Source of the DNA: an uncultured Bacteroidales bacterium
GTDB lineage: Bacteria; Bacteroidota; Bacteroidia; Bacteroidales; UBA932
DNA: 64,000 nt
Direction: 5' to 3'
NCBI GenBank assembly: GCA_900316955.1
Contig: ONEX01000004.1
Coordinates: 1-64,000, forward strand
Part shown: in pieces, positions 24,777 through 48,512 of the stretch
How positions within the stretch are numbered: position 1 is the first letter of the stretch
Layout: each line of letters starts with the position of its first letter
Program-made: the position numbers and the translations under genes
The notes under the pieces: generated by a model
The model's database searches: none
What the model was told of the DNA's origin: nothing
Seen by the model: the letters and a program-made list of their open reading frames with translations, nothing else

Positions 24777-24853
24777 GGTTCCGTAGCTCAGCTGGATAGA
24801 GCAACAGCCTTCTAAGCTGTGGGTCTTGGGTTCGAATCCCAACGGAATCACCA
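24777..24853 (+). tRNA. tRNA-Arg (anticodon TCT)
   Basis: A 77-nt tRNA with encoded CCA. Acceptor arms GGTTCCG / CGGAATC pair over seven positions (one G-T wobble), the D arm has AGCTCAGCTGGATAGAGC, the anticodon loop is CTTCTAA with TCT at 24811-24813, and the T arm has GGGTTCGAATCCC. It decodes AGA. It is the likely attachment site of the element that begins immediately downstream. Confidence 0.96.
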
Positions 24854-29870: not shown

Positions 29871-30821
29871 ATGAATAATAGACTCCTCCAAACACTCAAT
29901 CGCGCCCTCGAGCGCACCAAAACCACCCACTATGCTCCGGTTACCATCGAGGCCCTCCAGGCCCGCCTCAGCGAGGAACTGGACTGGCTGGACGCCTGCC
30001 CCGGCCGAGAGTGCCTGATCATCCTCCTGCAGGAGCTGGCCGCAGCCATGCGCAGCGCCCGCATCGTGGTGAGCCCCGGCTACAGCTTCCTTCCTGACTC
30101 CTACCTGCTCTTCCTGACCGGCGTGACCAAGGTCAATCCTGCCGAATGGGACTTGCCCTTCAGCCGCTTCACCAAGTCCGTCCATAACGGCGCAGAGATT
30201 CCCTTCGAGGCCGGAACCGGCTGCCTTGAAGTGGCCCGCAAAGTCCTCTCCAACCGTGAAAACGAAATGGTTGTCGAAATCGAAGCGGGCCTCTTTGAAA
30301 TCACCTTCCTGGATGGGATGGAGCTCCAGAACGTCAAGCTCCGCATCACCACCTATGCCGGCCTGGACCAGTTCGGCCGCACGCTCAAAGACGGCTGGCA
30401 TCCGCTGGACGAAGCAACCCTCCGGCTCTTTAGCCGAGGCGCTACGGATGGGACCATCTACTTCGAGTCCGACAAGATGCGGGAATGGCTCTTCGACTTC
30501 GACCCTGAATCGATGTCCGACCTGGTCCTCCTGAACGCCCTTTACTATCCCGGCAGGATTCATCTTTTCAAAGATGCCCTTGCCAGAAAGCAGAATCCCG
30601 CCCCCATCGATATTTTCCAAGACGGCAAAGCCGCAGGAATCCTACGAGAGAGCTACGGCGTCCCCGTATACCAGGAACAGTCTATTCTGATGGCCGGGCT
30701 CTATGGCGGGAAAGAGATTCCACTCAATTTCGAACTCGCCCCCAAGGGCCACCTCATCGGCCGCACCATGATGGCGGTCGAGGCCCTTTGGCCCCTGAGA
30801 AACTCATTCAAACTGAAATGA
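29871..30821 (+). CDS. DnaE-like fragment without catalytic residues
   Basis: A 316-aa protein with segments of bacterial DNA polymerase III alpha: SPGYSFLPDSYLLFLTGVTK and NPAEWDLPFSRFTKS match the palm region around the primer site, and LNALYYPGRIHLFKDALARK and ESYGVPVYQEQSILMAGLYG match the region usually reading LNALYRPGP...GVIVYQEQ. The PDFDxD motif carrying two catalytic aspartates is absent, so it should not polymerise. It is one uninterrupted frame with normal codon use, so it may be a maintained, repurposed protein. Followed in opposite direction by the 30844 gene. Confidence 0.7.
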   Translation: MNNRLLQTLNRALERTKTTHYAPVTIEALQARLSEELDWLDACPGRECLIILLQELAAAMRSARIVVSPGYSFLPDSYLLFLTGVTKVNPAEWDLPFSRFTKSVHNGAEIPFEAGTGCLEVARKVLSNRENEMVVEIEAGLFEITFLDGMELQNVKLRITTYAGLDQFGRTLKDGWHPLDEATLRLFSRGATDGTIYFESDKMREWLFDFDPESMSDLVLLNALYYPGRIHLFKDALARKQNPAPIDIFQDGKAAGILRESYGVPVYQEQSILMAGLYGGKEIPLNFELAPKGHLIGRTMMAVEALWPLRNSFKLK

Positions 30822-32419: not shown

Positions 32420-32635
32420 ATGGACGAGAATCCGAACCTCAACCGTATCAAGGTCGCTCTTGTTGAGCGCCAGAAAACCAGCAAATGGCTGGCTGAGCAA
32501 ATGGAAAAATCCGATACTACAGTATCTCGTTGGGTATCCAATAGAATCCAACCGTCAGTCGAACAATTATTCGAGATTGCCCGTATTCTAAACATGGATG
32601 TCAAGGATCTTCTCAATTCGAATAGCCTTAAATAG
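32420..32635 (+). CDS. XRE-type helix-turn-helix regulator of the defence operon (MAD1-like)
   Basis: A 71-aa HTH protein: RIKVALVERQKTSKWLAEQM, EKSDTTVSRWVSNRIQPSVE, IARILNMDVKDLL, the full Cro/CI-type fold and nothing else. ATG 32420 chosen; an upstream start in frame would add a non-homologous extension. It precedes the methylase by 8 bases and is probably an autoregulator preventing restriction before methylation is in place, like controller proteins of restriction-modification systems (inference). Confidence 0.82.
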   Translation: MDENPNLNRIKVALVERQKTSKWLAEQMEKSDTTVSRWVSNRIQPSVEQLFEIARILNMDVKDLLNSNSLK

Positions 32636-32643
32636 TCCCGATC

Positions 32644-34659
32644 ATGAACAACGAACCCATTAAGGACGATATCGTCCTCAATGATGACGAGTTGGTCTGT
32701 ATTCTGACCGAGACTCGTAAAAAAGCCACGCCCAAAGAGTTGGTACTCCAGTCTGTTATCCAGCAGATGAATGACGAGTACGGTTTTGAGCTTAGCGATA
32801 TGCAGCGAGATTTCTCCCTGCCTCTGGAGGATGAAGAAGGGAAGACGCGCCGTGTGGCTGTCGATCTGGCCATCTTTGAGTCCGGAATGGCGCACGACAA
32901 AGACCATCTGGCCCGTCTGTGCTTTGTTTTCGACAGCAAAGTCGCCGCAGAAGATAAGAAAAAAGGAGTTGATGCCATTCTGAATCCGGTTCTGTCCTAT
33001 AGTGACTGTGAGTTTGCTCTCTGGACTAATGGTGATGAGCTTTATTTCTACCAAAGAGTAGAAGACGAAGTGGGCAACATCGATATACAGGAACTCTCGG
33101 ATTTCCCGGGCGCCGACGAAAGCATTGAAGATCTTGAGCGACAAGGCGAACGTGCCAAACCCCGTAAACCTGCCAACGATTCCCTTGTTCGCACCTTCCG
33201 TCGCTGCCACGACTACATCTACGGCAATGAAGGCAAGAAGAAGACCGCATTCTGGGAGCTTCTGAATATGATATTCTGCAAGATTTATGACGAAAAACGC
33301 CGTTATCTGGATGCAGAACGCAACATTAGCTATAGACGCAAGTTCTGGGTGGGTGTCAAGGAAAGGAACACCCCGGAAGGAGAGCACGCCGTGACCGTCC
33401 GTATCAAAAACCTGTTTGAGGAGTTGAAGACCGACAGCCTATTCAAGGAAGTTTTCGATGGCAATGAGCAGATCTCACTTTCCGATCGCGGACTGGCTTA
33501 TGTCGCATCGGAACTCTCCAAGTATTCCTTCCTGGATGCTACTGTGGATGTGAAGGGCACCGCATACGAAACCATTGTTTCCAATACCCTCAAGCAGGAA
33601 GCAGGACAGTTCTTTACGCCAAGAAACATCATCAAGTGTATGGTGGAAATGATGAATCCCACCGTCAACACCCGCGTACTTGACCCGGCCTGCGGATCCG
33701 GCGGCTTCCTAGTAATGGTCCTGGACCACGTTCGCCGGCAAATTGCCAAGAACATCTATCCTGATGCCTCTGATGCTATTCTGGAGGTCAAGAGTAACAG
33801 TGACTTAGTGGTGGAGAAGATTCGAAAATATGCCGAGAAGATGATCTTCGGCTTTGATTTCGACTCTGATCTCCGTAAAGCTGCGCGTATGAATATGGTG
33901 ATGGCTGGTGATGGCCATGCCAATATCTTCAACATTAATTCGTTGGAGTATCCTGACGGTTCACTTCCTGATGTCCCCAGAATTGGCGAAGCTGTCAAGC
34001 GCAGTCTGGAACAGAATGGAGACACCGATTACGACCATCAGTTTGCTAAGGACAATGCTTTTGGCAAATTTGACATGGTCTTCACTAATCCTCCATTTGG
34101 CTCCAAAGTGGCCGTTGCTCCGGCTATCGCCGAGAAATACAGCATCGGAGGAGGTTCTTCCGCTCCGGAAATCCTCTTCATCGAGCAGTGCTACAACTTC
34201 CTGAAGCCTGGTGGAAAGATGGCTATCGTCCTTCCGGATGGCATCCTGGGCAATCCCAATACTGAAAGTGTGCGTAAATGGATTCTTCAGCGTTTCATCC
34301 TACTTGCATCCGTTGACCTGCCCGTGGAAACCTTCCTCCCGCAGGTGGGTGTGCAGGCCTCCCTGCTTTTCCTGCAGAAGAAGACAAAGATGGAAATGCT
34401 CAAGTCCATTGGGGACGAAGATTATGAGGTGTTTATGGCCATCGCCGAAGCTGTGGGCAAGGACCGACGTGGTGCTCCAGTATATGTGCGTGACGATGAC
34501 GGCGCCGAGATTCTTTACAACGAGACTCAGGAAAGGGCAACGTTCACTCCTTCCGGTGAGCTGATTAGCAAGTCCAGGAAAGTAAGAAAGAAGCATCTTG
34601 ACGATGATCTACCGAAGATTTCTGAAGCTTACAAGAAATATATCAACAAGGAGCAATGA
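32644..34659 (+). CDS. N6-adenine DNA methyltransferase with HsdR-N-like extra domain (MAD2-like)
   Basis: A 671-aa HsdM-type methylase. Motif I DPACGSGGFL (347-356) binds AdoMet and motif IV NPPF (482-485) is catalytic; FTPRNIIKCMVEMM precedes motif I as in HsdM. The first ~130 residues look like a type I restriction N-terminal domain (VAVDLAIFESG, ARLCFVFDSKV, LWTNGDELYFYQR), perhaps a degenerate nuclease-like fold because the usual ExK reads DSK. Overlaps the specificity gene by four bases (ATGA), like hsdM-hsdS. It presumably marks host DNA; no HsdR follows. Confidence 0.9.
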   Translation: MNNEPIKDDIVLNDDELVCILTETRKKATPKELVLQSVIQQMNDEYGFELSDMQRDFSLPLEDEEGKTRRVAVDLAIFESGMAHDKDHLARLCFVFDSKVAAEDKKKGVDAILNPVLSYSDCEFALWTNGDELYFYQRVEDEVGNIDIQELSDFPGADESIEDLERQGERAKPRKPANDSLVRTFRRCHDYIYGNEGKKKTAFWELLNMIFCKIYDEKRRYLDAERNISYRRKFWVGVKERNTPEGEHAVTVRIKNLFEELKTDSLFKEVFDGNEQISLSDRGLAYVASELSKYSFLDATVDVKGTAYETIVSNTLKQEAGQFFTPRNIIKCMVEMMNPTVNTRVLDPACGSGGFLVMVLDHVRRQIAKNIYPDASDAILEVKSNSDLVVEKIRKYAEKMIFGFDFDSDLRKAARMNMVMAGDGHANIFNINSLEYPDGSLPDVPRIGEAVKRSLEQNGDTDYDHQFAKDNAFGKFDMVFTNPPFGSKVAVAPAIAEKYSIGGGSSAPEILFIEQCYNFLKPGGKMAIVLPDGILGNPNTESVRKWILQRFILLASVDLPVETFLPQVGVQASLLFLQKKTKMEMLKSIGDEDYEVFMAIAEAVGKDRRGAPVYVRDDDGAEILYNETQERATFTPSGELISKSRKVRKKHLDDDLPKISEAYKKYINKEQ

Positions 34660-36065
34660 AAACGGCAAGAGTCCCGATATATTCCATTTATAAGGAGAAT
34701 CGTTTTGACGCTTCATATCACTTGAGTGATGGTGTGTTAAGTCGTCAAATCGTTCACCGTACCCCTTACCCTGTAACTACAATCGGTGCTGCATCAAGTA
34801 GAATATTTCATGCAGGTCGCTGGAAAAGGGCATACGTCTCCAATACGAATACTGGAGTAGCTCTGGTAGGTAGCTCAGATATGCTAAAAGCCGACTTAAA
34901 TACCCTGAAGCTTATCTCCCGGAGATTCACACCAGACTACTCTGATAAAATACTTGAAAAAGGGTGGATTTTGGTATCATGTTCTGGAACAATTGGTAAT
35001 AGTGTATTTACAACTCAAGAACATGCAGGAAAGCTAGCTTCTCAACATGTCATGAGAATAGTGCCCAATGATCAATTGGTGGCTGGATATGTATACGCCT
35101 TCCTTTCAACTCATTATGGCTATAATCTTCTTACACAAGGCACCTTTGGGGCAGTTATTCAACATATTGAACCCGCAAATGTCTCCTCTATTCCGATTCC
35201 GGTTATGCCAGACGACTTCCAGTTAAGGATAGATGGCAGTATTCAGAAAGCATCGACATTAAGAGAAGAAGCCGCTGAACTTATTTCGAGTGCTGAAAGA
35301 AAGCTTAAGGATGCTACGGGGCTTGAAGATTTGACGGTTGACGATTACGATTATTTCGGGCCAAGAAACGACACACGACAAGTATCCATTAATTCAGTGA
35401 ATATCAAAGAAGTTGGAACGGTATCTTTCAATGCTTTTTGCCATTCTCGTCGCATCAATCAACTCCGGAGCAAAATCCCGAATTCTGTGCGTATTAAAGA
35501 CGTTCTAGTCGGCGGTGACACATTCTCAACAGGTTCCTTCCCTCGCGTAGAAGTTAAGGAGGGTAATGGCGTAATGCTCATCAACCAATCTGACATCTTT
35601 GATACTATCGTCAAAGGGAAATGGATTTCCAAAAGAAAGGTTAATCTCTCCAATAACCTGGTTTCCTATGGCGAAGTCCTTGTCGCTGGCGTTGGTACGC
35701 TTGGCGAGAATGAGACTTTTTGCCGAGCTCTCTTTGCTAATGAAGATCTTGTGGGTCAGCTTATTTCTGGTGAGTTTATCAGAATGAAGTGCAATGAAAA
35801 GATGCCCTCCGGCTTTTTATTCACATGGTTGAATTCGGATTATGGGTTCCGCCTGATCCGTTCAACCCATAGTGGGACCAAGCTTTGTCGGCCCATCCCT
35901 ACACTGTTCCTTCAGATTCCAGTTCCGGTACTTTCCAAGGAAAAGATGGATGAGATAGATCTAATGGTCCGGACGGCCTTCACCAAGCGGCACCAGGCAA
36001 ACAACCTGGAGAAGGAGGCTATTCAGATGGTTGAGAATGAAATAGATAAGTGGAATAATAACTAA
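34656..36065 (+). CDS. HsdS-like DNA specificity subunit (MAD5-like)
   Basis: A 469-aa protein with two target-recognition domains. The first ends in GWILVSCSGTIGNSVFTTQE and LTQGTFGAVIQHIEPANVSS; the second has VSYGEVLVAGVGTLGENETF and GTKLCRPIPTLFLQIPVPV. Each is followed by helices that form the conserved coiled-coil regions. It should direct the methylase to a bipartite site. A+T-richer and more variable in composition than its neighbours, as expected for exchangeable specificity genes. Confidence 0.88.
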   Translation: MKTARVPIYSIYKENRFDASYHLSDGVLSRQIVHRTPYPVTTIGAASSRIFHAGRWKRAYVSNTNTGVALVGSSDMLKADLNTLKLISRRFTPDYSDKILEKGWILVSCSGTIGNSVFTTQEHAGKLASQHVMRIVPNDQLVAGYVYAFLSTHYGYNLLTQGTFGAVIQHIEPANVSSIPIPVMPDDFQLRIDGSIQKASTLREEAAELISSAERKLKDATGLEDLTVDDYDYFGPRNDTRQVSINSVNIKEVGTVSFNAFCHSRRINQLRSKIPNSVRIKDVLVGGDTFSTGSFPRVEVKEGNGVMLINQSDIFDTIVKGKWISKRKVNLSNNLVSYGEVLVAGVGTLGENETFCRALFANEDLVGQLISGEFIRMKCNEKMPSGFLFTWLNSDYGFRLIRSTHSGTKLCRPIPTLFLQIPVPVLSKEKMDEIDLMVRTAFTKRHQANNLEKEAIQMVENEIDKWNNN

Positions 36066-36073
36066 CGCTCTAT

Positions 36074-39000
36074 ATGGCAAAACTCTGTCCACACAAATAC
36101 TACGAGGGACCGGCCAATGCCGGCGAGGAACGTTTGTTCAGATTCCTCGAAGTGAACTTGCCAAACGATTACTTCATTGTTCCCAATGGAGAGTACCCCA
36201 GTATCAACGTACATGGTGGCGTTGAATATTGGGAATACGACTGTATTGTTGTGGCGCCACATGCTATTTATCATCTGGAAAACAAGGACTGGAAAGGCCG
36301 GATTGAAGGCGATGACAATTCCTGGTTTGTTAACGACCACGAGTTCAAGAATCCCATCAAGACTGCGCGTTTCAAGTCCAAGGTTCTGGTGGCTTATCTC
36401 AAAAAGAAAAACCCGCTATTTGGTAAGGCTTGGGTGGCCACGGCCATCACGCTCAGTAGCATCGGCCAGACCAAGTCCGGTCTTGACCCGGAATCTGGTA
36501 GTTTCCACGATACCTTCACACTGGGAGATGAGCTCATAGACTACTTGACAGACCCCTATCGTCTGGGAAAGGCGGCGAACGCAGTCTCCGACATCCAGTA
36601 TGATGTCCTGGACTATTTGGTAGGCACCAGCGAAGGTCAGTCTAAGAAGAAGACTCATATCCTCGATTTGGAGATTGACCGTATCCTGGACACGACGGAT
36701 GACTATATCGAATACCTTTGTCATCCCAAGCTGTTCAAAGATAAGTATTACCGTGTTCGCGACTATGTTTTGGACAAGGCTGGCCTCTCTCCGATAGAGC
36801 AGGAACAGCATTCGGCTCGTGTACAGAATGGACAGATCTCTCAAGAGCTGTTGCCGTCTTCCCCGACTATCATCAAGACCATTTGCCAGGAGAGCGAGGA
36901 TGGTAACCACTACTACGAGAAGAGCGAATACATGGAAGACCATACTCTTCTCGCAGAAATGCGTCGCAAGACCTTCACAGAATTCGATAAGGTGAAGATT
37001 CTGTTGGATGTGGCGCAGGCCCTGTCTCTTGCACATGAAAAAGGTGTAATCCACCGTGACCTTAACCCCAGTAATATCTTCCTCATCGACGGAGGAAAGA
37101 CAGCAGCCGTGGCCAACTTCAACTTGTCATACAACCAGATGCATATTGATCTGAATATGACAGTTGGAACGGATGCTTTCACACCCACCCCTTACCTTCC
37201 GATGGAGGTGATGGATGGTGATGTGGCTCCGGCGACGGATGCGTACTCTTTTGGCGTTATCGCCTATGAGTTGATGACCGGAGAAAAGTTCCCCTTCAAG
37301 GATTGTGTTGACTTCGTCAATCACGGTGGTCTTCTCACAGAGGATTTTATGCCCTCGTGCATCAATCCGAACATCCCTCAATGGGTAGATGAGTTGTGCC
37401 AGAGAACCATCGTTGATAACATGGCCATTCGTTGGGGAGACATTGATGAGATTCGCCAGTTCATTATTCAGAGCACTTTCGCAAGCGCCCAGCCTGAGCC
37501 TGTTCAACCTTCCACTCAACTGAAGGACCTTAAGTCCGGTGACCGCATCGACAACAACTTGACGCTCTATGAGTTTGTCGGGGAAGGTGGTTTCTCCCGT
37601 GTTTTCAAGGCGACACACTCCCTGCAACCCGGCAAAATCTACGCGGTCAAGATCTTTTCAGAAGACCTTTCTCCCAAAGCCGCCATCGATGAATTCAATG
37701 TCCTGCAGTCGCTCCATCATTCGAATATAGTCCAGTTTGAGTTCAACGGGACCACGGACGGTGGCCTCTTTTATACTTTGATGGACTATGTAGATGGCGA
37801 GAATATCCGCAAGTATGCATACGGCGACCTTCGCCTTCCGCTGCCCAAGATTTATCTTCTTGCCCAGCAGATGCTTTCCGCGCTTGTATATCTCCAGGAT
37901 CAAGAAAAACCCATATATCATCGTGACATCAAGCCGGAAAACATAATGATTGACAAATCCGGCAAGTTCATACTGATTGACTTCAATATCGCTGCAGACG
38001 TCGAAAATGTCGGCAAAGACAAATTGGGCACCTATCCTTACCTGGCGCCGGACCTCACGAATGGCAATAAAGTATCTTGGGATGCCAGTGCCGACACCTT
38101 CTCTCTTGGTGTAACGCTGTATGAAATGCTCACTCACGTCTATCCTTGGAGTGGTAGTAAGCGCGTGCCCGTTCTGGATAAGGAACCCACGGACATCAGG
38201 ACCCAGAATAAGCAGATTTCCGATGCCTTCGCTGACTTTGTTATGAAGGCGATAGGAACCCGTCGTGACAATCGTTTCCGCAATGCTAAGGAGATGCAGG
38301 ATGCCTTATTCGCTATCGGTCCTGACAATATCTTTGCTGAGGAAAGCCTTGTCCTGACTCATCCAGATGTGGATTTCTCCATCGTTGATTACCTCAATAG
38401 TCTCTATAGCCAGAGCGAGCGAGGCAATGCCGGTACCAGAGCTGGTCTTAAGGACAATTATCTTGATCGTGAGACCTATGTGGAAACAAAGCTGGACACC
38501 AAGTTGCTGGACGCAATCACGGCTGGGAAATTCCGTCTCCTGATTATTACCGGAAACGCCGGTGATGGCAAGACCGCATTCATACGCCGGATCGAGCAGG
38601 CGGCCGAGAACGTTGAATACTTCGGAGATACCCGCAATGGCGCTAAGTTCAAACTGGGCGGCATTCAGTATCAGAGCAACTATGACGGATCCCAGGATGA
38701 ATCCAACCTCAAGAATGAAGATGTACTAACCAAGTTCTTTGAGCCATTTGAGTATCTTCACGAGTTCAATGGAGTACAGGAAGGTCGTATTATCGCTATC
38801 AACGAAGGCCGCCTTATGGACTTCCTGCTCAACAATACCGACAAGCACGGATATCTTGCCCAGGTGATTGATGAGTACTTCTACAAGGGCGGCACTACGG
38901 AGCTTCCTGAAGGAGTAATGGTTATCAATCTCAACCTGCGTTCCGTTACCGCTCGTGAGAATAATCAGGACTCTTTGCTGCGTAAACAGATTCGTCTCTT

Positions 39001-40207
39001 GACCGCAAAGAAACTCTGGACCAGATGTGAAGGATGCCCCATTGCAGAGCGCTGCTTCATCAAGTATAACGTGGACACCTTGTCAGATACTGCAGCAGGT
39101 GCTGAAGTCGTCAATCGCCTGGAATGGTTGGTCCGTACCATCATCTATAAGCGTGAGATTCACATCTCGATGCGTGATCTTCGCTCCCTTATTTCATGGT
39201 TGCTCACTCGAGACTTCAACTGCACGGATGTGCCTCATCTGCTTCAGCGCTTCGACAGTTTAAAGGCCGCGTGGGAAGAGGATAAGGAGAGCCCCGAGAA
39301 GAAGTTGAAATACTACCGCTATCGGCAGTTCATGTGGGATCTCTACTATTTCAATATCACGTCTCCGGCGTATGATGCCGATTTGCGTTCAGAAGACCGC
39401 GTTGTTAAGCTTCTCCGACAGACAGATATTGCCCAGGTGGCTATCCCTGATAAAGATCTGGATCTATATTACGGTGAAAAACACGATGTGGATTACATTG
39501 AGTTTGCCGAGAGGAAACGGACCTTGCTCCAGGATTTCAACGAAGCAAGCGAGATTATGCCCAGTTATGAGCAGACTCCTGACGAATTGATGCTGCTAAA
39601 GCGCCGTCACCAAACGATGATTCGGCATCAGTACTTTGAGGGAAAGGCTGCGATTTATAAAGATCGGCCGGAATACTTCAAGCGCTTGCCGTATAAGTCC
39701 CTGTACCAATTCAATAAAGAGCTGAACGAGGAGGATCCTTCGGCCGTGGTCGCAAGCCTGGCTTACACTATCTCCTGTAGCGAGGGTTGCTGGGATCGTG
39801 AGCTGTCAAAGGACTACTTGATTCTTTCCTCAAGCCGCGTGAAAGATCCCAACAGTCGGAGCTACAGGCGTTTCCCCATTTCCGATTTCGAGCTGGCTGT
39901 GGATACCAACGAGAAGCTAGTCGAATACATTGAGCATGAGAATGACTGCCTGATCTTTAGGCACAAAATCAAGAAGGATGTTCGCTTGAATGTGTCCTTG
40001 GACTTGCGGGAAATGCTCTACTATATTGAACAAGGCTTCAACCCTTCTATCAATGACTTGAAAGGACGTTTCATTGAACTGCAGGTCTTCAAGAACTTGC
40101 TGGAAGCAGAGACGTATTCGGAGATCATCGTAACCAACGATGACAACCGTTACTACCGTATATCCTTGGACAAGGACTCTATGACGCTCGCAGTTGCACC
40201 CCTTTAA
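36074..40207 (+). CDS. NERD + double protein kinase + P-loop ATPase (MAD6-like)
   Basis: A 1377-aa multidomain protein. (1) Residues ~20-120: NERD nuclease-like domain with Asp56 and Glu69-x-Lys71. (2) Residues ~270-470: kinase-like domain with HRD (327-329, HRDLNPSN) but NFN instead of DFG and no glycine loop, so probably a pseudokinase. (3) Residues ~490-770: full kinase, GEGGFSRVF (503-511), AVKIF, HRDIKPEN (from 616), DFN in place of DFG. (4) From ~800: P-loop ATPase, GNAGDGKT (827-834), like DptF, plus a Cys motif (CEGCPIAERC). It recalls PglW of BREX-2 and the MADS kinase. Likely senses infection and activates the restriction proteins. Confidence 0.85.
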   Translation: MAKLCPHKYYEGPANAGEERLFRFLEVNLPNDYFIVPNGEYPSINVHGGVEYWEYDCIVVAPHAIYHLENKDWKGRIEGDDNSWFVNDHEFKNPIKTARFKSKVLVAYLKKKNPLFGKAWVATAITLSSIGQTKSGLDPESGSFHDTFTLGDELIDYLTDPYRLGKAANAVSDIQYDVLDYLVGTSEGQSKKKTHILDLEIDRILDTTDDYIEYLCHPKLFKDKYYRVRDYVLDKAGLSPIEQEQHSARVQNGQISQELLPSSPTIIKTICQESEDGNHYYEKSEYMEDHTLLAEMRRKTFTEFDKVKILLDVAQALSLAHEKGVIHRDLNPSNIFLIDGGKTAAVANFNLSYNQMHIDLNMTVGTDAFTPTPYLPMEVMDGDVAPATDAYSFGVIAYELMTGEKFPFKDCVDFVNHGGLLTEDFMPSCINPNIPQWVDELCQRTIVDNMAIRWGDIDEIRQFIIQSTFASAQPEPVQPSTQLKDLKSGDRIDNNLTLYEFVGEGGFSRVFKATHSLQPGKIYAVKIFSEDLSPKAAIDEFNVLQSLHHSNIVQFEFNGTTDGGLFYTLMDYVDGENIRKYAYGDLRLPLPKIYLLAQQMLSALVYLQDQEKPIYHRDIKPENIMIDKSGKFILIDFNIAADVENVGKDKLGTYPYLAPDLTNGNKVSWDASADTFSLGVTLYEMLTHVYPWSGSKRVPVLDKEPTDIRTQNKQISDAFADFVMKAIGTRRDNRFRNAKEMQDALFAIGPDNIFAEESLVLTHPDVDFSIVDYLNSLYSQSERGNAGTRAGLKDNYLDRETYVETKLDTKLLDAITAGKFRLLIITGNAGDGKTAFIRRIEQAAENVEYFGDTRNGAKFKLGGIQYQSNYDGSQDESNLKNEDVLTKFFEPFEYLHEFNGVQEGRIIAINEGRLMDFLLNNTDKHGYLAQVIDEYFYKGGTTELPEGVMVINLNLRSVTARENNQDSLLRKQIRLLTAKKLWTRCEGCPIAERCFIKYNVDTLSDTAAGAEVVNRLEWLVRTIIYKREIHISMRDLRSLISWLLTRDFNCTDVPHLLQRFDSLKAAWEEDKESPEKKLKYYRYRQFMWDLYYFNITSPAYDADLRSEDRVVKLLRQTDIAQVAIPDKDLDLYYGEKHDVDYIEFAERKRTLLQDFNEASEIMPSYEQTPDELMLLKRRHQTMIRHQYFEGKAAIYKDRPEYFKRLPYKSLYQFNKELNEEDPSAVVASLAYTISCSEGCWDRELSKDYLILSSSRVKDPNSRSYRRFPISDFELAVDTNEKLVEYIEHENDCLIFRHKIKKDVRLNVSLDLREMLYYIEQGFNPSINDLKGRFIELQVFKNLLEAETYSEIIVTNDDNRYYRISLDKDSMTLAVAPL

Positions 40208-40218
40208 TTGGCCCGAAA

Positions 40219-41790
40219 ATGTTACTTCCTAAGTTAGATAAACAAGAATCAGTCTTCCGCAACGAGGCTATCTTTGCTGCAGACGTGAAATCCATCACTC
40301 TGGACAATGTCTTGGTGACATTCTTCATGTTGATGCGTAACAATGGCTCCCGTATTGGCCTGAAAACACGGAACAAGTTCCACAAGATAGATTCTCTGCA
40401 GGAGTACTTCAATGTCCTGGAGAAGAAGGGACAGATTACCGGTGCATCCGATAATCCGGAAGCAATCGAGAGTTGGCTGCGCAGCAGTCTTATCAACCTT
40501 GTGTTTAGGGGAAAGGCTGACAAGGAGAACGTCGCATCTCTGCGCCCTCTTCATTTGGAGAGCTACCGTATTAGAAACCTCAAACATGCGAAGGATTACA
40601 ATGCTGCTGATCAGTTATATATTATGATTAGACAACGCCCGGAGGTCATGGAGGCATTGAAGTCCTACCTCACAATCGGGTGGGACAACAATACTAAAGC
40701 AGTCACGGGAGATCCCCAAGTAGATGTTGATACAGCAGGCGTCCTCCAACTGATGAGCCTGGTAGAGATTGACCCGAAAGTCACGACCGTTTCCCTAAAT
40801 AACATCAAACCAATCCTCGAGAAACAGGCTGAGCTTTACTGCGATGACGTCAAGCGACTTCTCTTCTATCAGGATGCCATACCGCGTAGCGTGTTCATCG
40901 ACTATCTGCGAATCCTTTCGGGCTTCCATCTATCGCTTTACTTTCAGAAGTTGATTCGCCTCCTTCCTCGTATGGTTGAAGCGGGGACAAAGAGTGTGGA
41001 AGATGATTGGAATATCGTTGTCGATCTGACTGATTCCTTGGAGGGTGATGTTGCCGATATCGCTTGTGCAGACATGGAGCGCCAGATGAACGGTCTGATG
41101 GAATACATTGTATCCTCGATGCGTATCAATGCCGTAGGCAAGTACCTTAACGAGACCTATGATGTTGAAAAAATCCTGCAAACGTTAAAGGCTCGTCCCG
41201 GTGAGTTTGATTCATATTTCCGTTTCAAACTCAACGCCATCTATGATCGCTATGATGATGACGCTGAAAATGAAGAAGAGGCGAAACAGGCCAAGGAAGA
41301 GCTCAAGCAGTATCTTGATTATGAAATAGACTTCTTCGATAAGTATATCCAGTGCATTGCAAAGGTGAGAGCCAGGTATCAGTACAAATATTCCTTTGAC
41401 TTCCTGGATAAGTCCTCGATGAAGAATCAGGATTCAGCGCTGGTTGCAGATGGCCGTAGCCGCAAGCATCCCCGCCGTGCAGTGATTGGTTCCAAACTGC
41501 TGGAAGTCCTTGTCCAGATGGTCGCTCTTACACCAAAGGAGGGGCTATATGAAACCTACTCTCTTTCCATCACTGAACTCATGAAGAGAATCCGTGAAAG
41601 ATACGGTCTCATCATAGACGGCACACAAGAGGAACGGTTTAAGGACTCCGATATTACCACCCATCTTGCTTTCCGCACCAATGTGGAGGCCCTCAAGAAT
41701 AAGTTACGTCAGATTGGTTTTTACAATGATTTGAGCGACGCCTCCATCATGCAAAAGATTCGTCCTCGTTACAACGTGAATAACAAGTAA
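40219..41790 (+). CDS. DptG-like protein (MAD7-like)
   Basis: A 523-aa, mainly helical protein with no enzymatic motif that I recognise. Its place between a DptF-like ATPase and a DptH-like HerA ATPase is that of DptG in phosphorothioation-linked restriction (DptFGH) and of MAD7 in MADS. A Glu/Asp-rich stretch at about 345-365 (DRYDDDAENEEEAKQAKEEL) separates two helical halves; the C-terminal KLLEVLVQMVALTPKEGLYE to RIRERYGLIIDG looks like a winged-helix. Starts 11 bases after the kinase gene and ends 2 bases before the next. Assignment rests on position and overall shape. Confidence 0.6.
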   Translation: MLLPKLDKQESVFRNEAIFAADVKSITLDNVLVTFFMLMRNNGSRIGLKTRNKFHKIDSLQEYFNVLEKKGQITGASDNPEAIESWLRSSLINLVFRGKADKENVASLRPLHLESYRIRNLKHAKDYNAADQLYIMIRQRPEVMEALKSYLTIGWDNNTKAVTGDPQVDVDTAGVLQLMSLVEIDPKVTTVSLNNIKPILEKQAELYCDDVKRLLFYQDAIPRSVFIDYLRILSGFHLSLYFQKLIRLLPRMVEAGTKSVEDDWNIVVDLTDSLEGDVADIACADMERQMNGLMEYIVSSMRINAVGKYLNETYDVEKILQTLKARPGEFDSYFRFKLNAIYDRYDDDAENEEEAKQAKEELKQYLDYEIDFFDKYIQCIAKVRARYQYKYSFDFLDKSSMKNQDSALVADGRSRKHPRRAVIGSKLLEVLVQMVALTPKEGLYETYSLSITELMKRIRERYGLIIDGTQEERFKDSDITTHLAFRTNVEALKNKLRQIGFYNDLSDASIMQKIRPRYNVNNK

Positions 41791-41792
41791 TT

Positions 41793-44700: not shown

Positions 44701-47315
44701 ATCGTGATACCTCTGTGCCCGCTCTGATGCTGGATATTCAAGATACCAATTCCGTGATGCTCTCTCGTATACACGATGTCTCTGACTGGGTGATCACCTT
44801 TGATAAGAACATGGGACCAGAGTTCTACGACATCCCCTGTGGAGATGGAGAAGTGCCCTATTTGCTGGATTATATCCCCAGCACGGAACTTACCGGAATC
44901 TCATCCTTCCTTACCTGCAGGCCAACGTCGGAAATAGAGAGTATTCTCACGCCGCATTTTAAGGAATTCGGAATCGACATTGCCAATAAGAGACGATTCT
45001 ATGATTTCCTGGCTGACATTCGTTCCGTCAGCAGCTCCATGATTATGCAGCTCAACAGTTCAAGGAATAAGGTGTTCGAAGTGCTGGGAACGACGTTGAT
45101 GAAACGGTTGCTAAAGGGTAAGGATCTTCTTCAGGATTCATTCATCATTCCTATCGACCTTCATCAGGATCTTTTCAATAATCAGAAGTTCTCTCCGATG
45201 GCCACCAAGGAAAGAGCTGATGATTTATTGGTTGACATCCATCCGCAAACCGGCGAAATTGTATTCACTATTGTTGAGATAAAGTGCCGCCAACAGCTCT
45301 CTTCTGAGCAGCGCGCAGATCTGCAAGAAAAGATGCTTGAGCAGATCAATAACACGGAAGCGGCTCTTTCCAGTTTGTTTGATCCCACGAAAGATAATCT
45401 CAATCTTGACCACGAGCTGAAGGTGATTGAACTCCAATCCCTGCTCTTATTCTATCTGCGCCGTGCTTCTCGATATGAATACCTGTGCGAAGAGACGGCA
45501 AAGGAGAACGAGAAGTTTATCCTAGGTCTTACGAAGGACAACTACACGATTCGCTGCAAGAAACTGGGACTTATTTTCGAGTTTCAGAATGACATCCTGC
45601 AAAATAAGGAAGTCTTCTTCGAGGGAGACGAATCTTTCACTTGCTATACTCTCGGAAAGCCAATGATCGACCGTATTTTGGCCGAAAACGCTATTCTTAA
45701 TACGGCAGGCTTGTACGGTAGTGATGAAAGCCAAGCGAACGAGGAACTTACTGAATTCTTTGAAGTTTCAGATAGGACGCAGCGGGAGATGAGTTTCCGA
45801 AGCTTTATAGAACCTGCAGATGAGCCCGAACTCGTCAAAGATGTGCCTGTGGTGATTCCAGAGGATAAGCCGGTTGAGTCCAAGCAAGAAAAGGACCCTG
45901 AAGTAGAGGATAAGCCCAAAGAGCAGCCGGAAGAGACCCCTGTTGAGAAGAAAGAAGAGGAGAAACCCTCTACGTATGTCATTCCCGAATCGGAACCTCA
46001 GGAATTGCACGATTCCGCTGGGCATAATAAGTATGGAACCGGAAATGGCATGGAACACCTCGATTCTATGGCGGCCAACCTTGCTAAGAAGGAAGAGTCT
46101 AAGGGCCCGTCCTTTGACATAATGGTAGGCAAAACAACATCCTTCAGCGAACAGTATGGTATCCTTGGCCGGACAATAAATGGCAATCGTAAGATCGCTC
46201 TGGATCTAAGCGAGACGAATACAATCAGCCTGTTCGGTGTTCAGGGGGGAGGTAAAAGCTATACGATTGGAACGGTCAGTGAAATGACGCTGAAACAGTT
46301 CCCGGAAATCAACCTGTTGCCTGGGCCGATGGCAAGCGTCATCTTCCACTACAGTGAGAGCCTTGATTATGCACCAGAGTTCACCTCCATGGTATATCCG
46401 AATGATGATGCCGGGCAATTGGCCAAGCTGAAAGAACAGTATGGCGCCGCTCCTGGATCAATTAGCGATGTCATCATGCTCGCTCCTGAAGATAAGGTGG
46501 AGGAGCGCCAGGAAGAATATCCGTCCATTCAGGTCCTTCCGATCAAGTTTCACTCAAAAGATCTGAATGTCCAGGATTGGATGTTCCTTCTCAAAGCGGT
46601 TGGGAACGACTCTACGTACATCACTCAGCTGAAAGCCATCATGAGGGCGAACCGAAAGAACCTTAACATCGAGGACTTAAAGGATAGTGTGGAATCATCT
46701 CCTCTGCTTTCCACATCTCAAAAGTCGCTGGCTATGCAGCGCCTAAGCTTTGCTGAAGAGTATATTGATGATACCATGAGGCTTGGTGAAATCTTGCGTC
46801 CTGGCCGTTTGATTATTGTGGACCTTCGTGACGAATTCATTGAAAAAGACGACGCCCTTGGCCTTTTCGTTATTATGCTAAACATCTTCTCCGGTGTCAA
46901 ACAATATGAAGGTAAAGGCTTCAACAAGTTTATTGTTTTTGATGAAGCCCACAAGTATATGAACAACAAGGATTTGACCTCTACTATTGTGACTGCCATT
47001 CGTGAGATGCGACACAAGGGCGTATCTATGATGATTGCCAGCCAGGATCCTATGAGCCTTCCGACAGACATAATAGAGCTTTCCTCCGTGATGCTCCTAC
47101 ACCGGTTCAACAGTCCTCAGTGGGTTAAGCACGTACAGCACTCTATCACACAACTGCAGAACCTTACTGCGTCCGATATGGCCAGTCTGGGTACTGGAGA
47201 AGCATATCTCTGGGCGACGAAGGCCACTGACAAGGGCGTTACCAACCGGCCGGTCAAAATCAGCACTCGTCCTCGAGTAACAAAGCATGGTGGAGATACG
47301 ATAAAAGCTATCTAA
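41793..47315 (+). CDS. DptH/HerA-like ATPase with embedded PD-(D/E)XK motif (MAD8-like)
   Basis: An 1840-aa protein. Residues ~1-1100 are a large region without known motifs. At 1140-1170, LLVDIHPQTGEIVFTIVEIK gives Asp1148 ... Glu1162-x-Lys1164, a PD-(D/E)XK nuclease signature. A Pro/Glu/Lys linker (~1365-1410) separates it from a HerA/FtsK-type motor: Walker A GVQGGGKS (1482-1489), Walker B FIVFDEAHKYM, and sensor region MMIASQDPMSLP. Similar architecture is found in DptH of phosphorothioation systems. It probably translocates on and cuts invading DNA. Its stop codon and the next ATG overlap by one base. Confidence 0.85.
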   Translation: MNTTQLYYTRILDTFIEEYEDQLTQVKEGHCMKVVGLPLDVLESLYDRLKALNLSLQIFILSENNEGDRYISATKLIELRNDLTLSILVLIPVNVSTAAEDSYGNATFKELSIAHLNQRLLNKLMFEVQSNDIIREILGFTKEGFSQQKILDYLLYVIENGQSKEAIGKGLFILGLLPDADIAKDSTLVRRRLSINNESVTQMVDYSKQINDRIDALPLLPNTLQRELAMFLQMEKKANSRTELCEAVANHYTDIDFSKWNDCIKGIDVTSLGNLTVSAVELYSKSFGNDLEGDLTLPIQSNKPAKIKIRVFFSPKPKAFPDLKKVRIAIYNVDGMYCEYDRLKTANVTDNARDYRDITVTIKPNDFNSGRYFFRVFAEDENGTVLNQKDGFKDDAWLDKWNEVKEQMSKEEFIERNRAFLTSDSETFFLQTVDASDFDEDLLQDSRREKISNVLQAYFHYRIELNRKGEELLVPERQKISDKDDKSKTEDKSWQEGLYTDTFRIKYSSSQNFQIILSKKLLGIEREILKKSITLGTVEAKLTSNHTEKLQSLVFTPLDGIEVPESLVKARNTLFSAIQESAIGNSGILETFDVHSHIDILKDYLEEFHAWLKAVVDEDLSMETILKLQSVDMVNIVVILPDGQVSGMKLISPLHPLRLAWMVDIYEQYEDWENKTIEHPQYRDAWYKKLDQLFYGNLVPNIAPLILRDIEQKQYLQYVGEVVFGWGLYVSSAEQQEEAFSSGFRQLRSYLAHLLNVPVQSRIDTDVNAEMVQRYMFNYITQHPYTDKLVINLFNAGDAAVFAANLVALEKRCRPFDIHYEIRLFCADKRFIQGEAFRDLIDPDTQVSEEAEMFSQATSNRLFPKLRFSVNTVEEFISNAQNYSAHLSFLINPFPTETKLHKPSTGQQSFFLNGVVCRPIVQVTKTEKGCQWQRFYSDIRLPHPSSEFANDMIGLFSEYQSLVAMSMSNDRDTSVPALMLDIQDTNSVMLSRIHDVSDWVITFDKNMGPEFYDIPCGDGEVPYLLDYIPSTELTGISSFLTCRPTSEIESILTPHFKEFGIDIANKRRFYDFLADIRSVSSSMIMQLNSSRNKVFEVLGTTLMKRLLKGKDLLQDSFIIPIDLHQDLFNNQKFSPMATKERADDLLVDIHPQTGEIVFTIVEIKCRQQLSSEQRADLQEKMLEQINNTEAALSSLFDPTKDNLNLDHELKVIELQSLLLFYLRRASRYEYLCEETAKENEKFILGLTKDNYTIRCKKLGLIFEFQNDILQNKEVFFEGDESFTCYTLGKPMIDRILAENAILNTAGLYGSDESQANEELTEFFEVSDRTQREMSFRSFIEPADEPELVKDVPVVIPEDKPVESKQEKDPEVEDKPKEQPEETPVEKKEEEKPSTYVIPESEPQELHDSAGHNKYGTGNGMEHLDSMAANLAKKEESKGPSFDIMVGKTTSFSEQYGILGRTINGNRKIALDLSETNTISLFGVQGGGKSYTIGTVSEMTLKQFPEINLLPGPMASVIFHYSESLDYAPEFTSMVYPNDDAGQLAKLKEQYGAAPGSISDVIMLAPEDKVEERQEEYPSIQVLPIKFHSKDLNVQDWMFLLKAVGNDSTYITQLKAIMRANRKNLNIEDLKDSVESSPLLSTSQKSLAMQRLSFAEEYIDDTMRLGEILRPGRLIIVDLRDEFIEKDDALGLFVIMLNIFSGVKQYEGKGFNKFIVFDEAHKYMNNKDLTSTIVTAIREMRHKGVSMMIASQDPMSLPTDIIELSSVMLLHRFNSPQWVKHVQHSITQLQNLTASDMASLGTGEAYLWATKATDKGVTNRPVKISTRPRVTKHGGDTIKAI

Positions 47316-47983
47316 TGAAACTGATAACGTATTCAAATATTGGCGCTAGAGCGAAGAACGAAGACCGTTTTGCACATCACGTACTGCCCAATGGTGATCT
47401 ACTCTTCATTGTTGCAGACGGAATGGGCGGATATGATGCTGGAGAAGAGGCGGCAGAATGCGCTGTTAGGGCCATCTCGGCATCGCTGACAGAGAGTCCT
47501 TGCAATATTCGGCTTGCAGTGGAGCGAGCAAACTCAGCGATTGCAGAGAGGAGAATCGGTCTGGGAGTTTCAGAAATGGGATGCACCATTGCGGCTGTCA
47601 CCCTCCATCAAGATACTGCCACCATTTTTTGGGCAGGTGATACCAGGGTGTACATTATCAGGAATGATCGCATCGTCTTTGAGACAGAGGACCATTCACT
47701 CATCAATGAGATGCGTAGGATTAAGCGCTTGACCCCAGCCCAGATCAGGAAGTATGAACACATCGTCCGACGGTCCTTGATGGGGAACATAATAGATGAT
47801 GTGGAGATTCTCGATCAGCCGGTACTTCCGGGAGATGAGATTTTGATATGCAGCGATGGATTCCACAAAGAGATTCCGATTCCTATCCTGCTAGAGAAGC
47901 TTCGCTCAGATAATCCCTTCCATATAGACAATGAGAAGTTTTCAGACAACCACACTTTGATTTACATCAAATTAGACTCATAA
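47315..47983 (+). CDS. PP2C-family protein phosphatase of the defence operon
   Basis: A 222-aa PP2C (PPM) phosphatase. Metal-binding motifs are visible: ARAKNEDRFA, FIVADGMGGYDAGE, FWAGDTRVYI and DNHTLI near the end. It overlaps the ATPase gene by one base and would reverse the action of the kinase encoded three genes upstream. Kinase/phosphatase pairs are unusual in restriction-type operons; a role as brake on the defence response is a reasonable inference. Confidence 0.9.
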   Translation: MKLITYSNIGARAKNEDRFAHHVLPNGDLLFIVADGMGGYDAGEEAAECAVRAISASLTESPCNIRLAVERANSAIAERRIGLGVSEMGCTIAAVTLHQDTATIFWAGDTRVYIIRNDRIVFETEDHSLINEMRRIKRLTPAQIRKYEHIVRRSLMGNIIDDVEILDQPVLPGDEILICSDGFHKEIPIPILLEKLRSDNPFHIDNEKFSDNHTLIYIKLDS

Positions 47984-47985
47984 CT

Positions 47986-48204
47986 ATGGCATCATTCAAA
48001 TACAAAATATTGGAATTCACTCCTGGGGAAAAGATGGAGAAGGTTTTCAATGAATTAGGCAAGGACGGATGGGAACTCGTCTCGGTCACACCTATTGGCC
48101 TTTCAATTAAAGGTGATTTTGACTCATCGTTTGGCGGCGTTGGAGGAGGAGAAACAAGTGGTCAGTTTGAAAAGATTGCGGCATACTTCAAGAAAACTAA
48201 TTAA
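47986..48204 (+). CDS. DUF4177 small protein
   Basis: A 72-aa protein: FKYKILEFTPG, EKVFNELGKDGWELVSVTPI, then a glycine-rich linker (FGGVGGGETSG) and a short end. The first part is the DUF4177 fold (a small alpha/beta domain with the WELVSV signature). Two bases after the phosphatase, so part of the operon. Function not known; could be an inhibitor or adaptor. Confidence 0.7.
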   Translation: MASFKYKILEFTPGEKMEKVFNELGKDGWELVSVTPIGLSIKGDFDSSFGGVGGGETSGQFEKIAAYFKKTN

Positions 48205-48206
48205 CA

Positions 48207-48512
48207 ATGGGGAATAATCAGTATACGGACCTCTGGGAATACTATCGCCCTGTGATTACGAAACTTGTTAAGGAAGGAGGCGGGCATTTTCAGCTGAACA
48301 AAGAGCTGTTTGTACAGAGAGGGAATAGGAACAATTATTCCTTCTCAATGACTGTTATTGACGGAGCTATTCCTGAACTCGGCGGTAGCGCTGTTGCACG
48401 TGACCTTAAGAGTGTTCTGGATAGAAGCGCATCTTTCATGAAGTACGCCGCAGGGAAGACCCTTGGAATTCGTCTGACGGCATCATTCTCCCTTGAAGTA
48501 AGTGTGGCTTAA
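48207..48512 (+). CDS. Small protein of unknown function at the end of the defence operon
   Basis: A 101-aa protein (MGNNQYTDLWEYYRPVITKL...) with a C-terminal stretch of alternating hydrophobics (LGIRLTASFSLEVSVA). No family recognised and no nuclease or toxin motif. Starts 2 bases after the DUF4177 gene, so it is translated from the same mRNA. It is the last gene before a 27-base gap and a composition change. Confidence 0.6.
   Translation: MGNNQYTDLWEYYRPVITKLVKEGGGHFQLNKELFVQRGNRNNYSFSMTVIDGAIPELGGSAVARDLKSVLDRSASFMKYAAGKTLGIRLTASFSLEVSVA

What the first reader, a model, noticed from the sequence alone, without database searches (positions are those of the whole stretch)
32420..48512. A MADS-like, methylation-linked defence operon lacking HsdR, with added PP2C phosphatase and two small proteins
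One uninterrupted same-strand operon, mostly with overlaps or gaps under 12 bases: HTH, HsdM-type methylase, HsdS, NERD-kinase-kinase-ATPase, DptG-like, DptH/HerA-like, PP2C, DUF4177, 101-aa protein. From memory of the published methylation-associated defence system (MADS; nuclease, ATPase, kinase and methyltransferase parts in eight genes), I would map these to MAD1, MAD2, MAD5, MAD6, MAD7, MAD8. An AAA ATPase pair (MAD3/MAD4), which I recall between methylase and S subunit, is absent: here methylase and S genes overlap by four bases. The phosphatase and two small proteins are not part of the set I remember. It could be a distinct subtype carried by a mobilizable element.
Basis: partly seen in the sequence, partly recalled or inferred. 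Interest (0 to 1): 0.9.

Follow-up and report, generated by a model that had tools for sequence, protein, structure and literature searches.

The report
MADS phage-defence operon with built-in phosphatase
This is a version, seen in Bacteroides-type bacteria, of a known DNA-methylation-based phage-defence system that lacks two of the usual genes and instead carries a protein phosphatase next to its protein kinase, which suggests that the defence is held in check by its own phosphorylation switch.

Summary
The operon is real and is a MADS relative. Five proteins pass NCBI's curated cut-offs for MAD2, MAD5, MAD6, MAD7 and MAD8. MAD3 and MAD4 have no match in the genome, and the MAD1 slot holds another HTH family. 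The PP2C is not a stray gene: it sits directly behind MAD8 in nine of nine loci of one Bacteroidota clade (window, L007, L008, L009, L018, L019, L036, L038, L041); in the eight with the MAD2-MAD5 junction in view no MAD3/MAD4 lies there. The tree needs one gain. Four other kinase-bearing MADS loci (L010, L011, L043, L044) and two kinase-less relatives (L012, L039) lack it. In the window's genome MAD6 holds the only two Pkinase matches and this is the only PP2C match. The two small proteins occur in no other locus held and are probably passengers. Most likely the PP2C reverses phosphorylation by MAD6 and keeps a DndFGH-like effector off until unmethylated DNA is met. The operon rides on a 43.5-kb integrative element in a tRNA-Arg gene. 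New variant of a known kind; function untested.

The parts
32420..32635 (+). Cro/C1-type HTH protein in the MAD1 slot (71 aa from ATG)
   Evidence: Pfam HTH_3 30.4 bits, HTH_26 29.1 bits; relatives 52-90% identical found only before MAD2 of L007, L008, L009 among the loci held; no NF047737 (MAD1) match
32644..34659 (+). MAD2: HsdM-type adenine methylase with an HsdR_N-like N-terminal domain
   Evidence: NF047738 760.7 bits, cut-off 720; PADLOC best match is MTase_II (936.5 bits), mad2 second (230.7); NPPF and SAM motifs kept; PF13588, its nuclease-type residues not constant across loci
34656..36065 (+). MAD5: specificity (S) subunit; N-terminal half exchanged relative to L007
   Evidence: NF047740 510.1 bits, cut-off 400; PADLOC best match Specificity_II (469.5 bits), mad5 second (120.1); identity to L007 per 30 residues 17-40% over residues 1-240 and 70-100% over 241-469
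36074..40207 (+). MAD6: NERD nuclease domain (36116-36412), pseudokinase (about 36827-37300), active-type kinase (about 37568-38287), P-loop GNAGDGKT (38552-38575), C-terminal part
   Evidence: NF047741 589.2 bits, cut-off 460; NERD 55.8 bits and two Pkinase stretches; motifs
40219..41790 (+). MAD7 (523 aa), probable DndG-like DNA-binding subunit (fold not tested)
   Evidence: NF047733 555.7 bits, cut-off 410; PADLOC mad7 152 bits
41793..47315 (+). MAD8 (1840 aa): DndH-like, nuclease motif D...EIK at about 45219-45299 and HerA-like ATPase (Walker A about 46230-46265, KFIVFDEAHKY 46926-46958)
   Evidence: NF047742 188.6 bits, cut-off 175, over residues 29-219; PADLOC mad8 110.8 bits; motifs kept in all 15 aligned loci
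47315..47983 (+). PP2C-type Ser/Thr phosphatase, the conserved added component of this clade
   Evidence: PF13672 59.5 bits, Stp1-type model 115 bits, under its cut-off of 230, PADLOC PDC-M21C 39.9 bits; metal-site motifs kept in 9 of 9; directly behind MAD8 in 9 of 9 loci; only PF13672 match in the genome
32318..32419 (+). upstream region conserved with L007, likely holds the operon promoter and marks the left end of the conserved module
   Evidence: alignment to L007, identity rises at about 32316; no sigma-70-type promoter on this strand
47986..48204 (+). 72-aa DUF4177-like protein: passenger, probably not part of the system
   Evidence: DUF4177 26.8 bits, cut-off 25; no tblastn match at E 0.1 in any other locus held
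48207..48512 (+). 101-aa protein of unknown family: passenger, probably not part of the system
   Evidence: no Pfam, NCBIfam or PADLOC match at E 0.01; no match in any other locus held or, at E 0.01, in 72,556 plasmid records
24806..24852 (+). attL: 47-bp 3' part of tRNA-Arg(tct) (24777-24853), repeated exactly at contig position 68280-68326, beyond the window
25046..26296 (+). tyrosine integrase of the carrier element
   Evidence: Phage_int_SAM_5 54.6 bits, Arm-DNA-bind_5 26.9 bits
62380..63876 (-). MobA/VirD2-type relaxase of the carrier element (resolvase at 61673-62239)
   Evidence: Relaxase 67.3 bits, Resolvase 160.3 bits

Best explanation
It is a Bacteroidota variant of MADS in which a core of HTH, MAD2, MAD5, MAD6, MAD7 and MAD8 stands without MAD3/MAD4 and has gained a dedicated PP2C phosphatase. 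MAD2-MAD5 methylates host DNA at a motif set by the S subunit. MAD6-MAD7-MAD8 is a DndFGH-like surveillance and effector complex (nuclease motif plus HerA-type motor in MAD8, NERD nuclease and kinase in MAD6) that acts on unmethylated incoming DNA. The phosphatase removes phosphates placed by the MAD6 kinase on itself, on partner subunits or on host targets, so that the resting system stays off and the response is graded and reversible. Shown here: gene content, conservation, single gain, catalytic motifs, co-divergence, and that kinase and phosphatase are the only ones of their Pfam families found in the window's genome. Inferred: that methylation, cleavage and phosphorylation occur, that MAD6 or its targets are the substrate, and that the operon stops phages.
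For: Five MADS equivalog cut-offs passed. PP2C directly behind MAD8 in 9 of 9 loci of the clade; with the start codons chosen the junction is -4 to +2 bases in 8 and -29 in one, L038. One change of state on the MAD7+MAD8 tree of 15 loci; 9-row clade SH-aLRT 100. The PP2Cs group together against 9 other PP2Cs of the window's genus, support 84. PP2C distances track MAD6, MAD7, MAD8 (Mantel r 0.90, 0.88, 0.92). Only PF13672 match in 4 of 5 PP2C-bearing whole genomes searched (G000, G688, G874, G947; G690 has a second, weak one). G000's only Pkinase matches are the two in MAD6. Kinase-less relatives L012 and L039 have no PP2C, and their genomes have neither PP2C nor Pkinase matches. PP2C metal-site motifs and the second kinase's K, HRD and DFN are intact. 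Precedent: KKP kinase-kinase-phosphatase antiphage module (PMC11341870, abstract and passages seen).
Against: Kinase-bearing MADS loci exist without a PP2C in the record held: L010, L011, L043, L044, so a linked phosphatase is not needed in every host; host phosphatases may serve there, which was not tested. PP2C presence is confounded with phylogeny: one gain in one clade is a single evolutionary event, so the link to the kinase and to the absence of MAD3/MAD4 cannot be separated statistically; the Mantel test does not correct for shared descent. Several genomes of the clade hold other kinases (G688, G874, G947) that the PP2C might serve. PADLOC's best matches for the methylase and S subunit are generic type II models, not mad2 and mad5. 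No expression, methylation or plaque data.
Confidence: 0.66

Rival explanations
1. Guard or toxin-antitoxin model (a sharper form of the best explanation, not exclusive with it): the phosphatase is an antitoxin and the bait. It holds a toxic MAD6 kinase (and NERD nuclease) silent; phage proteins that inhibit or displace it release the kinase and the cell stops growing, adding an abortive arm to the restriction arm, as reported for KKP, where T4 Gp59 inhibits the phosphatase PfpC.
For: KKP precedent (PMC11341870, abstract and passages). PP2C evolves faster than its partners: between window and L007 dN 0.107 and dN/dS 0.148, against dN 0.019-0.031 and dN/dS 0.018-0.025 for MAD2, MAD6, MAD7, MAD8 (dS is 0.7 for PP2C and 1.0-1.4 for these four, so the ratios are rough); mean identity over nine loci 36% against 51-53% for MAD6, MAD7, MAD8.
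Against: Faster change also follows from weaker constraint; dN/dS is far below 1. In the window-L007 pair residues 121-150 are unchanged and change is spread over the rest. No toxicity data. KKP's kinases are two separate proteins, here one.
Confidence: 0.2
2. The PP2C is a passenger or general regulator that happens to sit at the end of the operon and does not act on MADS proteins.
For: It is the last gene of the conserved part; the genes after it mostly differ from locus to locus; it changed faster than MAD2, MAD6, MAD7 and MAD8.
Against: 9 of 9 loci of the clade keep it in the same place with intact motifs, and in four of five genomes it is the only PF13672 match.
Confidence: 0.07
3. The PP2C took over the regulatory task of MAD3/MAD4 (AAA ATPase plus small protein), i.e. 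the two modules are alternative brakes or triggers on the same MAD6-8 effector (not exclusive with the best explanation).
For: The two were not seen together: MAD3 and MAD4 pass their cut-offs only in the Piscinibacter record of L011, which has no PP2C match (1 of 15 genomes or records); PP2C was matched in 8 of 14 genomes or records, none of them with MAD3/MAD4.
Against: L010, L043 and L044 have neither (L043 has a second methylase in the slot), so MAD3/MAD4 can be missing without PP2C; only one MAD3/MAD4 locus was in the sample.
Confidence: 0.15

Closest known systems
MADS, methylation-associated defense system (Maestri et al. 2024, Cell Host Microbe; content recalled, seen only as a citation in other papers; the text is not held)
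   Same: MAD2, MAD5, MAD6, MAD7, MAD8 over NCBIfam equivalog cut-offs, in the same order as in the eight-gene Piscinibacter locus L011
   Different: no MAD3, no MAD4, another HTH family in the MAD1 slot, added PP2C; L011 passes NCBI's cut-offs for MAD1-MAD4 and MAD6 (its MAD5, MAD7, MAD8 were not scanned there) and has no PP2C
DndFGH / DptFGH restriction module (PMC10853773: abstract, sections 19, 21, 22 and passages read)
   Same: published DndF variants have NERD, inactive and active kinase copies before a P-loop core with Asn in the Walker B position; DndH has a nuclease and a HerA/FtsK domain. MAD6 and MAD8 show the same order of motifs
   Different: no Dnd/Dpt model in the match lists shown (for MAD6 PADLOC showed 25 of 42 families); no phosphorothioation gene among the nine; a methylase and S subunit instead. 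The paper holds the word 'phosphatase' 0 times and 'PP2C' 0 times
KKP kinase-kinase-phosphatase module (PMC11341870, abstract and passages read)
   Same: two kinase units and a PP2C in one operon, on mobile elements, defence against lytic phages
   Different: KKP is three separate genes with no methylase or nuclease; here pseudokinase and kinase are fused to NERD and a P-loop core
BREX type 2 PglW (PMC12839542, passages read)
   Same: NERD, pseudokinase and kinase order; the PglW model matches MAD6 residues 54-744
   Different: 206.2 bits against a cut-off of 990; PglX models reach at most 26.4 bits for MAD2; no PglZ or PglY match among the nine proteins

Membership tests
MADS (eight-gene system) | MAD2 methylase, MAD5 S subunit, MAD6 kinase, MAD7, MAD8 equivalogs | tested here: met
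   760.7/720, 510.1/400, 589.2/460, 555.7/410, 188.6/175 bits against cut-off; PADLOC ranks mad6, mad7, mad8 first but mad2 and mad5 second
MADS (eight-gene system) | MAD3 AAA ATPase | tested here: not met
   no match in G000; over cut-off in 1 of 15 genomes or records, L011's
MADS (eight-gene system) | MAD4 | tested here: not met
   no match in G000; over cut-off in 1 of 15, L011's
MADS (eight-gene system) | MAD1 excisionase-type HTH | tested here: not met
   window HTH matches HTH_3/HTH_26 and not NF047737 at E 0.01; L011's MAD1 does, 95.3/80 bits
MADS (eight-gene system) | core gene order 2-5-6-7-8 on one strand | tested here: met
   same order in L011 with MAD3 and MAD4 inserted
MADS (eight-gene system) | DNA methylation-dependent defence against phage | not testable with these tools
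   needs methylome and plaque assays
BREX type 2 | PglW equivalog | tested here: not met
   206.2 bits, cut-off 990
Type I restriction-modification | HsdR subunit in the operon | tested here: not met
   no HsdR among the nine; only an HsdR_N-like domain in MAD2
DndFGH | DndG-type triple winged-helix fold of MAD7 | not tested
DndFGH | P-loop with Walker B Asn after NERD-kinase-kinase (DndF) and nuclease plus HerA motifs (DndH) | tested here: inconclusive
   motifs GNAGDGKT, AINEG, D...EIK, Walker A/B present in order, but no Dnd model in the match lists shown
KKP | separate PP2C and two kinase genes (PfkA, PfkB, PfpC) | tested here: not met
   both kinase units lie in one 1377-aa protein with NERD

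The most novel reading that the evidence does not exclude
This MADS clade is a two-armed system: a methylation-guided DndFGH-like restriction arm and a kinase-phosphatase arm in which the fast-evolving PP2C is at once the safety catch and the phage sensor, so that phage interference with the phosphatase or with methylation self-recognition both release MAD6. This would merge the logic of restriction-modification and of KKP in one operon and name a further MADS component.
Probability: 0.2. Interest if true: 0.78.

Novelty: new variant of a known kind. Interest (0 to 1): 0.56.

Why it matters
How MADS restricts phage is given as unknown in a 2026 review (PMC12904381, passages seen). A clade-wide phosphatase, in a genome where this operon holds the only PF00069 kinase and PF13672 phosphatase matches, makes the role of the kinase directly testable: delete the phosphatase and watch for kinase toxicity or loss of control. 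It also shows that MAD3/MAD4 are absent in several lineages, so the shared effector is MAD6-MAD7-MAD8, and it gives a natural exchange of half an S subunit between two operons that are otherwise 95-97% identical in MAD2, MAD6, MAD7 and MAD8, useful for mapping the methylation motif.

Tried and rejected
Rejected: the 72-aa and 101-aa proteins as parts of the system (no tblastn match at E 0.1 in any other locus held; the 101-aa protein has none at E 0.01 in 72,556 plasmid records; in L007 the PP2C is followed by genes that look by eye like chromosomal ones). Rejected: BREX type 2 (PglW under cut-off). Rejected: an active HsdR-type nuclease in MAD2; the domain is there but the acidic and lysine positions vary between loci. 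Rejected as a strict rule: 'PP2C replaces MAD3/MAD4', because L010, L043 and L044 have neither.

Led nowhere: E. coli genomes with the Piscinibacter MAD7 DNA (no match), phages with the window MAD7 (no match), PDB by sequence for MAD7 (none), structure prediction of MAD7 (not available). Genome contigs with the window MAD7 gave one relative, L007. The Maestri 2024 paper is not held, so whether it already shows this variant is unknown to me. Searches that turned up no statement of a PP2C in MADS: (capped listings) and passages; no supplements could be read.

Left out of the counts: L037 (MAD6-MAD8 pieces 41-52% identical to L011's, but the contig is cut on both sides), L040 and L013-L015 (distant kin, MAD7 19-22% identical; no PP2C match by blastp in the stretches held), and L006, L042, L045 (partial weak MAD7 matches, not examined). 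L018 is cut inside MAD5, so MAD3/MAD4 could not be judged there from the locus; its genome G690 has neither over cut-off. L007's genome was not searched for further PP2Cs or kinases. L048, which holds the DNA before L041's MAD2, was fetched after and looked at only as an ORF list; no HTH was apparent.
Full report
Observation. Pfam finds HTH_3, N6_Mtase, Methylase_S, NERD plus two Pkinase stretches, PP2C_2 and a borderline DUF4177; the 523-aa and 101-aa proteins have no Pfam match at E 0.01 and the 1840-aa protein only a weak HerA_C match.

Family. NCBIfam equivalog models give MAD2 760.7 bits (cut-off 720), MAD5 510.1 (400), MAD6 589.2 (460), MAD7 555.7 (410) and MAD8 188.6 (175); the MAD6 and MAD8 models cover only the first 610 residues and residues 29-219. 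PADLOC ranks mad6, mad7 and mad8 first for their proteins, but for the methylase and the S subunit its best matches are generic type II models (936.5 and 469.5 bits), with mad2 (230.7) and mad5 (120.1) second. MAD3 and MAD4 have no match in the window's genome; among 15 genomes or records searched each passes its cut-off in one, the Piscinibacter plasmid. That plasmid locus (L011) reads HTH, methylase, AAA ATPase, small protein, S subunit, kinase, MAD7, MAD8 and its MAD1, MAD2, MAD3, MAD4 and MAD6 pass NCBI's cut-offs. The window's HTH is of another family.

Search for relatives. MAD7 is rare. At E 0.001 the model matched in 6 of 395 genomes of the phylum, 3 of 393 of the order, 7 of 395 of the class, 2 of 245 of the class of G337 and 3 of 36 of the order of G947; these samples overlap and count the window's genome or the centre. 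Over the curated cut-off the numbers are 1, 3, 4, 0 and 1. One relative came from genome contigs (L007), four plasmid records from 72,556, none from phages, and three IMG/VR contigs.

Gene content. Nine loci (window, L007, L008, L009, L018, L019, L036, L038, L041) carry a PP2C directly after MAD8: with the start codons chosen the junctions are -1, -1, -1, -4, +2, +1, -4, -29 and -4 bases in that order (proteins found). In the eight loci where the MAD2-MAD5 junction is in view the two genes adjoin: -4 to +3 bases in the seven with one MAD2 ORF, and in L008, whose MAD2 is split, the second piece overlaps MAD5 by 4 bases. L041 has a Schlafen/AlbA-type gene between MAD5 and MAD6. Four other kinase-bearing MADS loci have no PP2C match anywhere in the record held: L010 Hymenobacter, L011 Piscinibacter, and IMG/VR L043 and L044; L043 has a second methylase in the MAD3/MAD4 slot. 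Two relatives, L012 and L039, have the order short MAD6 (592-593 aa, no NERD or kinase part) - MAD7 - MAD2 - MAD5 - MAD8, and their genomes have neither PP2C nor Pkinase matches.

Phylogeny. On a tree of MAD7+MAD8 from 15 loci the nine PP2C loci form one clade (SH-aLRT 100) and the trait needs one change; L044 has a long branch and nine rows an unlike letter make-up. The nine PP2Cs separate from nine other PP2Cs of the window's genus with support 84, below the 95 mark and with long branches. Pairwise distances of PP2C track those of MAD6, MAD7 and MAD8 (r 0.90, 0.88, 0.92); this does not correct for shared ancestry. Because there was one gain, 9 of 9 measures retention, not repeated association.

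Genome context of the pair. PF13672 has one match in each of G000, G688, G874 and G947, the operon's own; G690 has a second, weak one. PF00069 has two matches in G000, both in MAD6; in G690 both are in MAD6 as well; G688, G874 and G947 have further kinases. So in the window's organism MAD6 and this PP2C are the only matches of these two Pfam families, as far as a 98.46%-complete genome shows. In the window's genus 19 of 61 genomes, the window's included, have some match to this PP2C; of nine such loci looked at, four show a kinase signature in a neighbouring frame, so kinase-phosphatase pairing is not peculiar to MADS.

Motifs. Across the aligned loci: the NERD domain keeps D and [ED]-x-K in all 13 loci that have it; the first kinase unit of the nine PP2C loci keeps HRD (HRN in L008) but has NF[GN] in place of DFG and, in the window, matches the Pkinase profile only from position 48, so it reads as a pseudokinase; the second keeps the lysine, H[RCQ]D and DFN in 13 of 13. 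MAD6 has GNAGDGKT and a Walker-B-like strand ending in Asn-Glu. MAD8 keeps D...E[IV]K and HerA-type Walker A and B motifs in 15 of 15; L012 and L039 have a different HerA-type sequence, in line with the published idea of HerA/FtsK exchange in DndH (PMC10853773, sections 19, 21 and 22 read). MAD2 keeps NPPF in the 13 aligned first copies (L043's second copy has NPWF); its N-terminal HsdR_N-like domain (over Pfam's cut-off in 5 of 8 scanned) lacks constant nuclease residues. PP2C keeps its D, DG, GD, [ST]DG and DN positions in 9 of 9.

Rates. Between the window and L007, dN/dS is 0.018-0.025 for MAD2, MAD6, MAD7 and MAD8, 0.148 for PP2C and 0.204 for MAD5; dS is 0.7 for PP2C and 1.0-1.8 for the rest, near saturation, so the ratios are rough, but dN itself is 0.107 for PP2C against 0.019-0.031 for the first four. 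In MAD5 the change lies in residues 1-240 (17-40% identity per 30 residues) while 241-469 are 70-100% identical: half of the S subunit was exchanged, the mark of a specificity switch. Upstream identity with L007 begins about 100 bases before the HTH start.

Carrier. A tRNA-Arg(tct) at 24777-24853 is followed by an integrase; the tRNA's 47-bp 3' part is repeated exactly at contig position 68280-68326, giving an element of about 43.5 kb with resolvase and relaxase. G+C falls from 61-66% left of the element (16-25 kb) to 46-50% over 25-61 kb; the last 3 kb of the window, still inside, have 58%.

Regulatory slot. Before MAD2 lie a Cro/C1 HTH (window, L007, L008, L009), DUF6577 (L010, L036), DUF6577 plus AbiEii (L038) or AbiEi plus AbiEii (L019). 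The module seems to take on different toxin-antitoxin-type regulators.

Mechanism. The most likely reading is a methylation-guided, DndFGH-like effector whose kinase is opposed by its own phosphatase. KKP shows that a kinase-phosphatase balance can be an antiphage switch (PMC11341870; abstract and passages). Which protein is phosphorylated, and whether the phosphatase is only a brake or also a sensor, is open. The rival readings overlap with the main one, so their odds are not meant to add up to one.

Novelty. No paper in the listings, as far as titles, abstract starts and word counts show, and no passage read, links PP2C to MADS or DndFGH; the primary MADS paper is not held, so prior description cannot be excluded. 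I file it as a new variant of MADS, not as the eight-gene system itself, since MAD1, MAD3 and MAD4 were tested and not met.

Noticed in passing
window 24777-64000 and on to contig position 68326 (G000:C26): A 43.5-kb integrative mobilizable element in tRNA-Arg(tct) with a 47-bp att repeat, integrase, resolvase, PIF1-like helicase, relaxase and, by eye only, a ParA-like gene.
   Followed up: partly
window 29871-30821 (+): A 316-aa protein with pieces of the DNA polymerase III alpha subunit (finger 64.3 bits; NTPase domain 23.5 bits, just under its cut-off), inside the element upstream of the operon; a shortened DnaE-like protein on a mobile element is odd.
   Followed up: no
L010, L019, L036, L038 before MAD2: AbiEi, DUF6577 and AbiEii genes fill the MAD1 slot in four loci.
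   Followed up: partly
L012 (G337), L039 (G969): Kinase-less relatives with order short MAD6-MAD7-MAD2-MAD5-MAD8 and a different HerA-type sequence: a third architecture.
   Followed up: partly
L041 and L048 (IMG/VR G1317): A PP2C-type MADS operon downstream of a terminase-like gene (phrog_2, 35.2 bits) on an IMG/VR contig, so the system may also ride on a prophage.
   Followed up: partly
L043 2442-4463: A second, divergent methylase (37% identical to L011's MAD2, NPWF instead of NPPF) between MAD2 and MAD5.
   Followed up: no
L015 138-1865 and 12862-14151: A distant relative of MAD6-MAD8 flanked by genes that look, by eye only, like a macrodomain/DarT-type pair and a DNA methylase.
   Followed up: no
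L008 22334-22885 and L041 17732-18283: A 183-aa protein without Pfam match, alike by eye in the two loci, follows shortly after the PP2C in both: a possible recurrent accessory.
   Followed up: no
window 53396-54130 (+): A YoeB-like toxin domain (37.5 bits, cut-off 27) at the start of a 244-aa ORF in the element.
   Followed up: no
L008 6438-8449: The MAD2 gene of the Phocaeicola plasmid locus is split into two ORFs, either a broken gene or a sequencing error.
   Followed up: no
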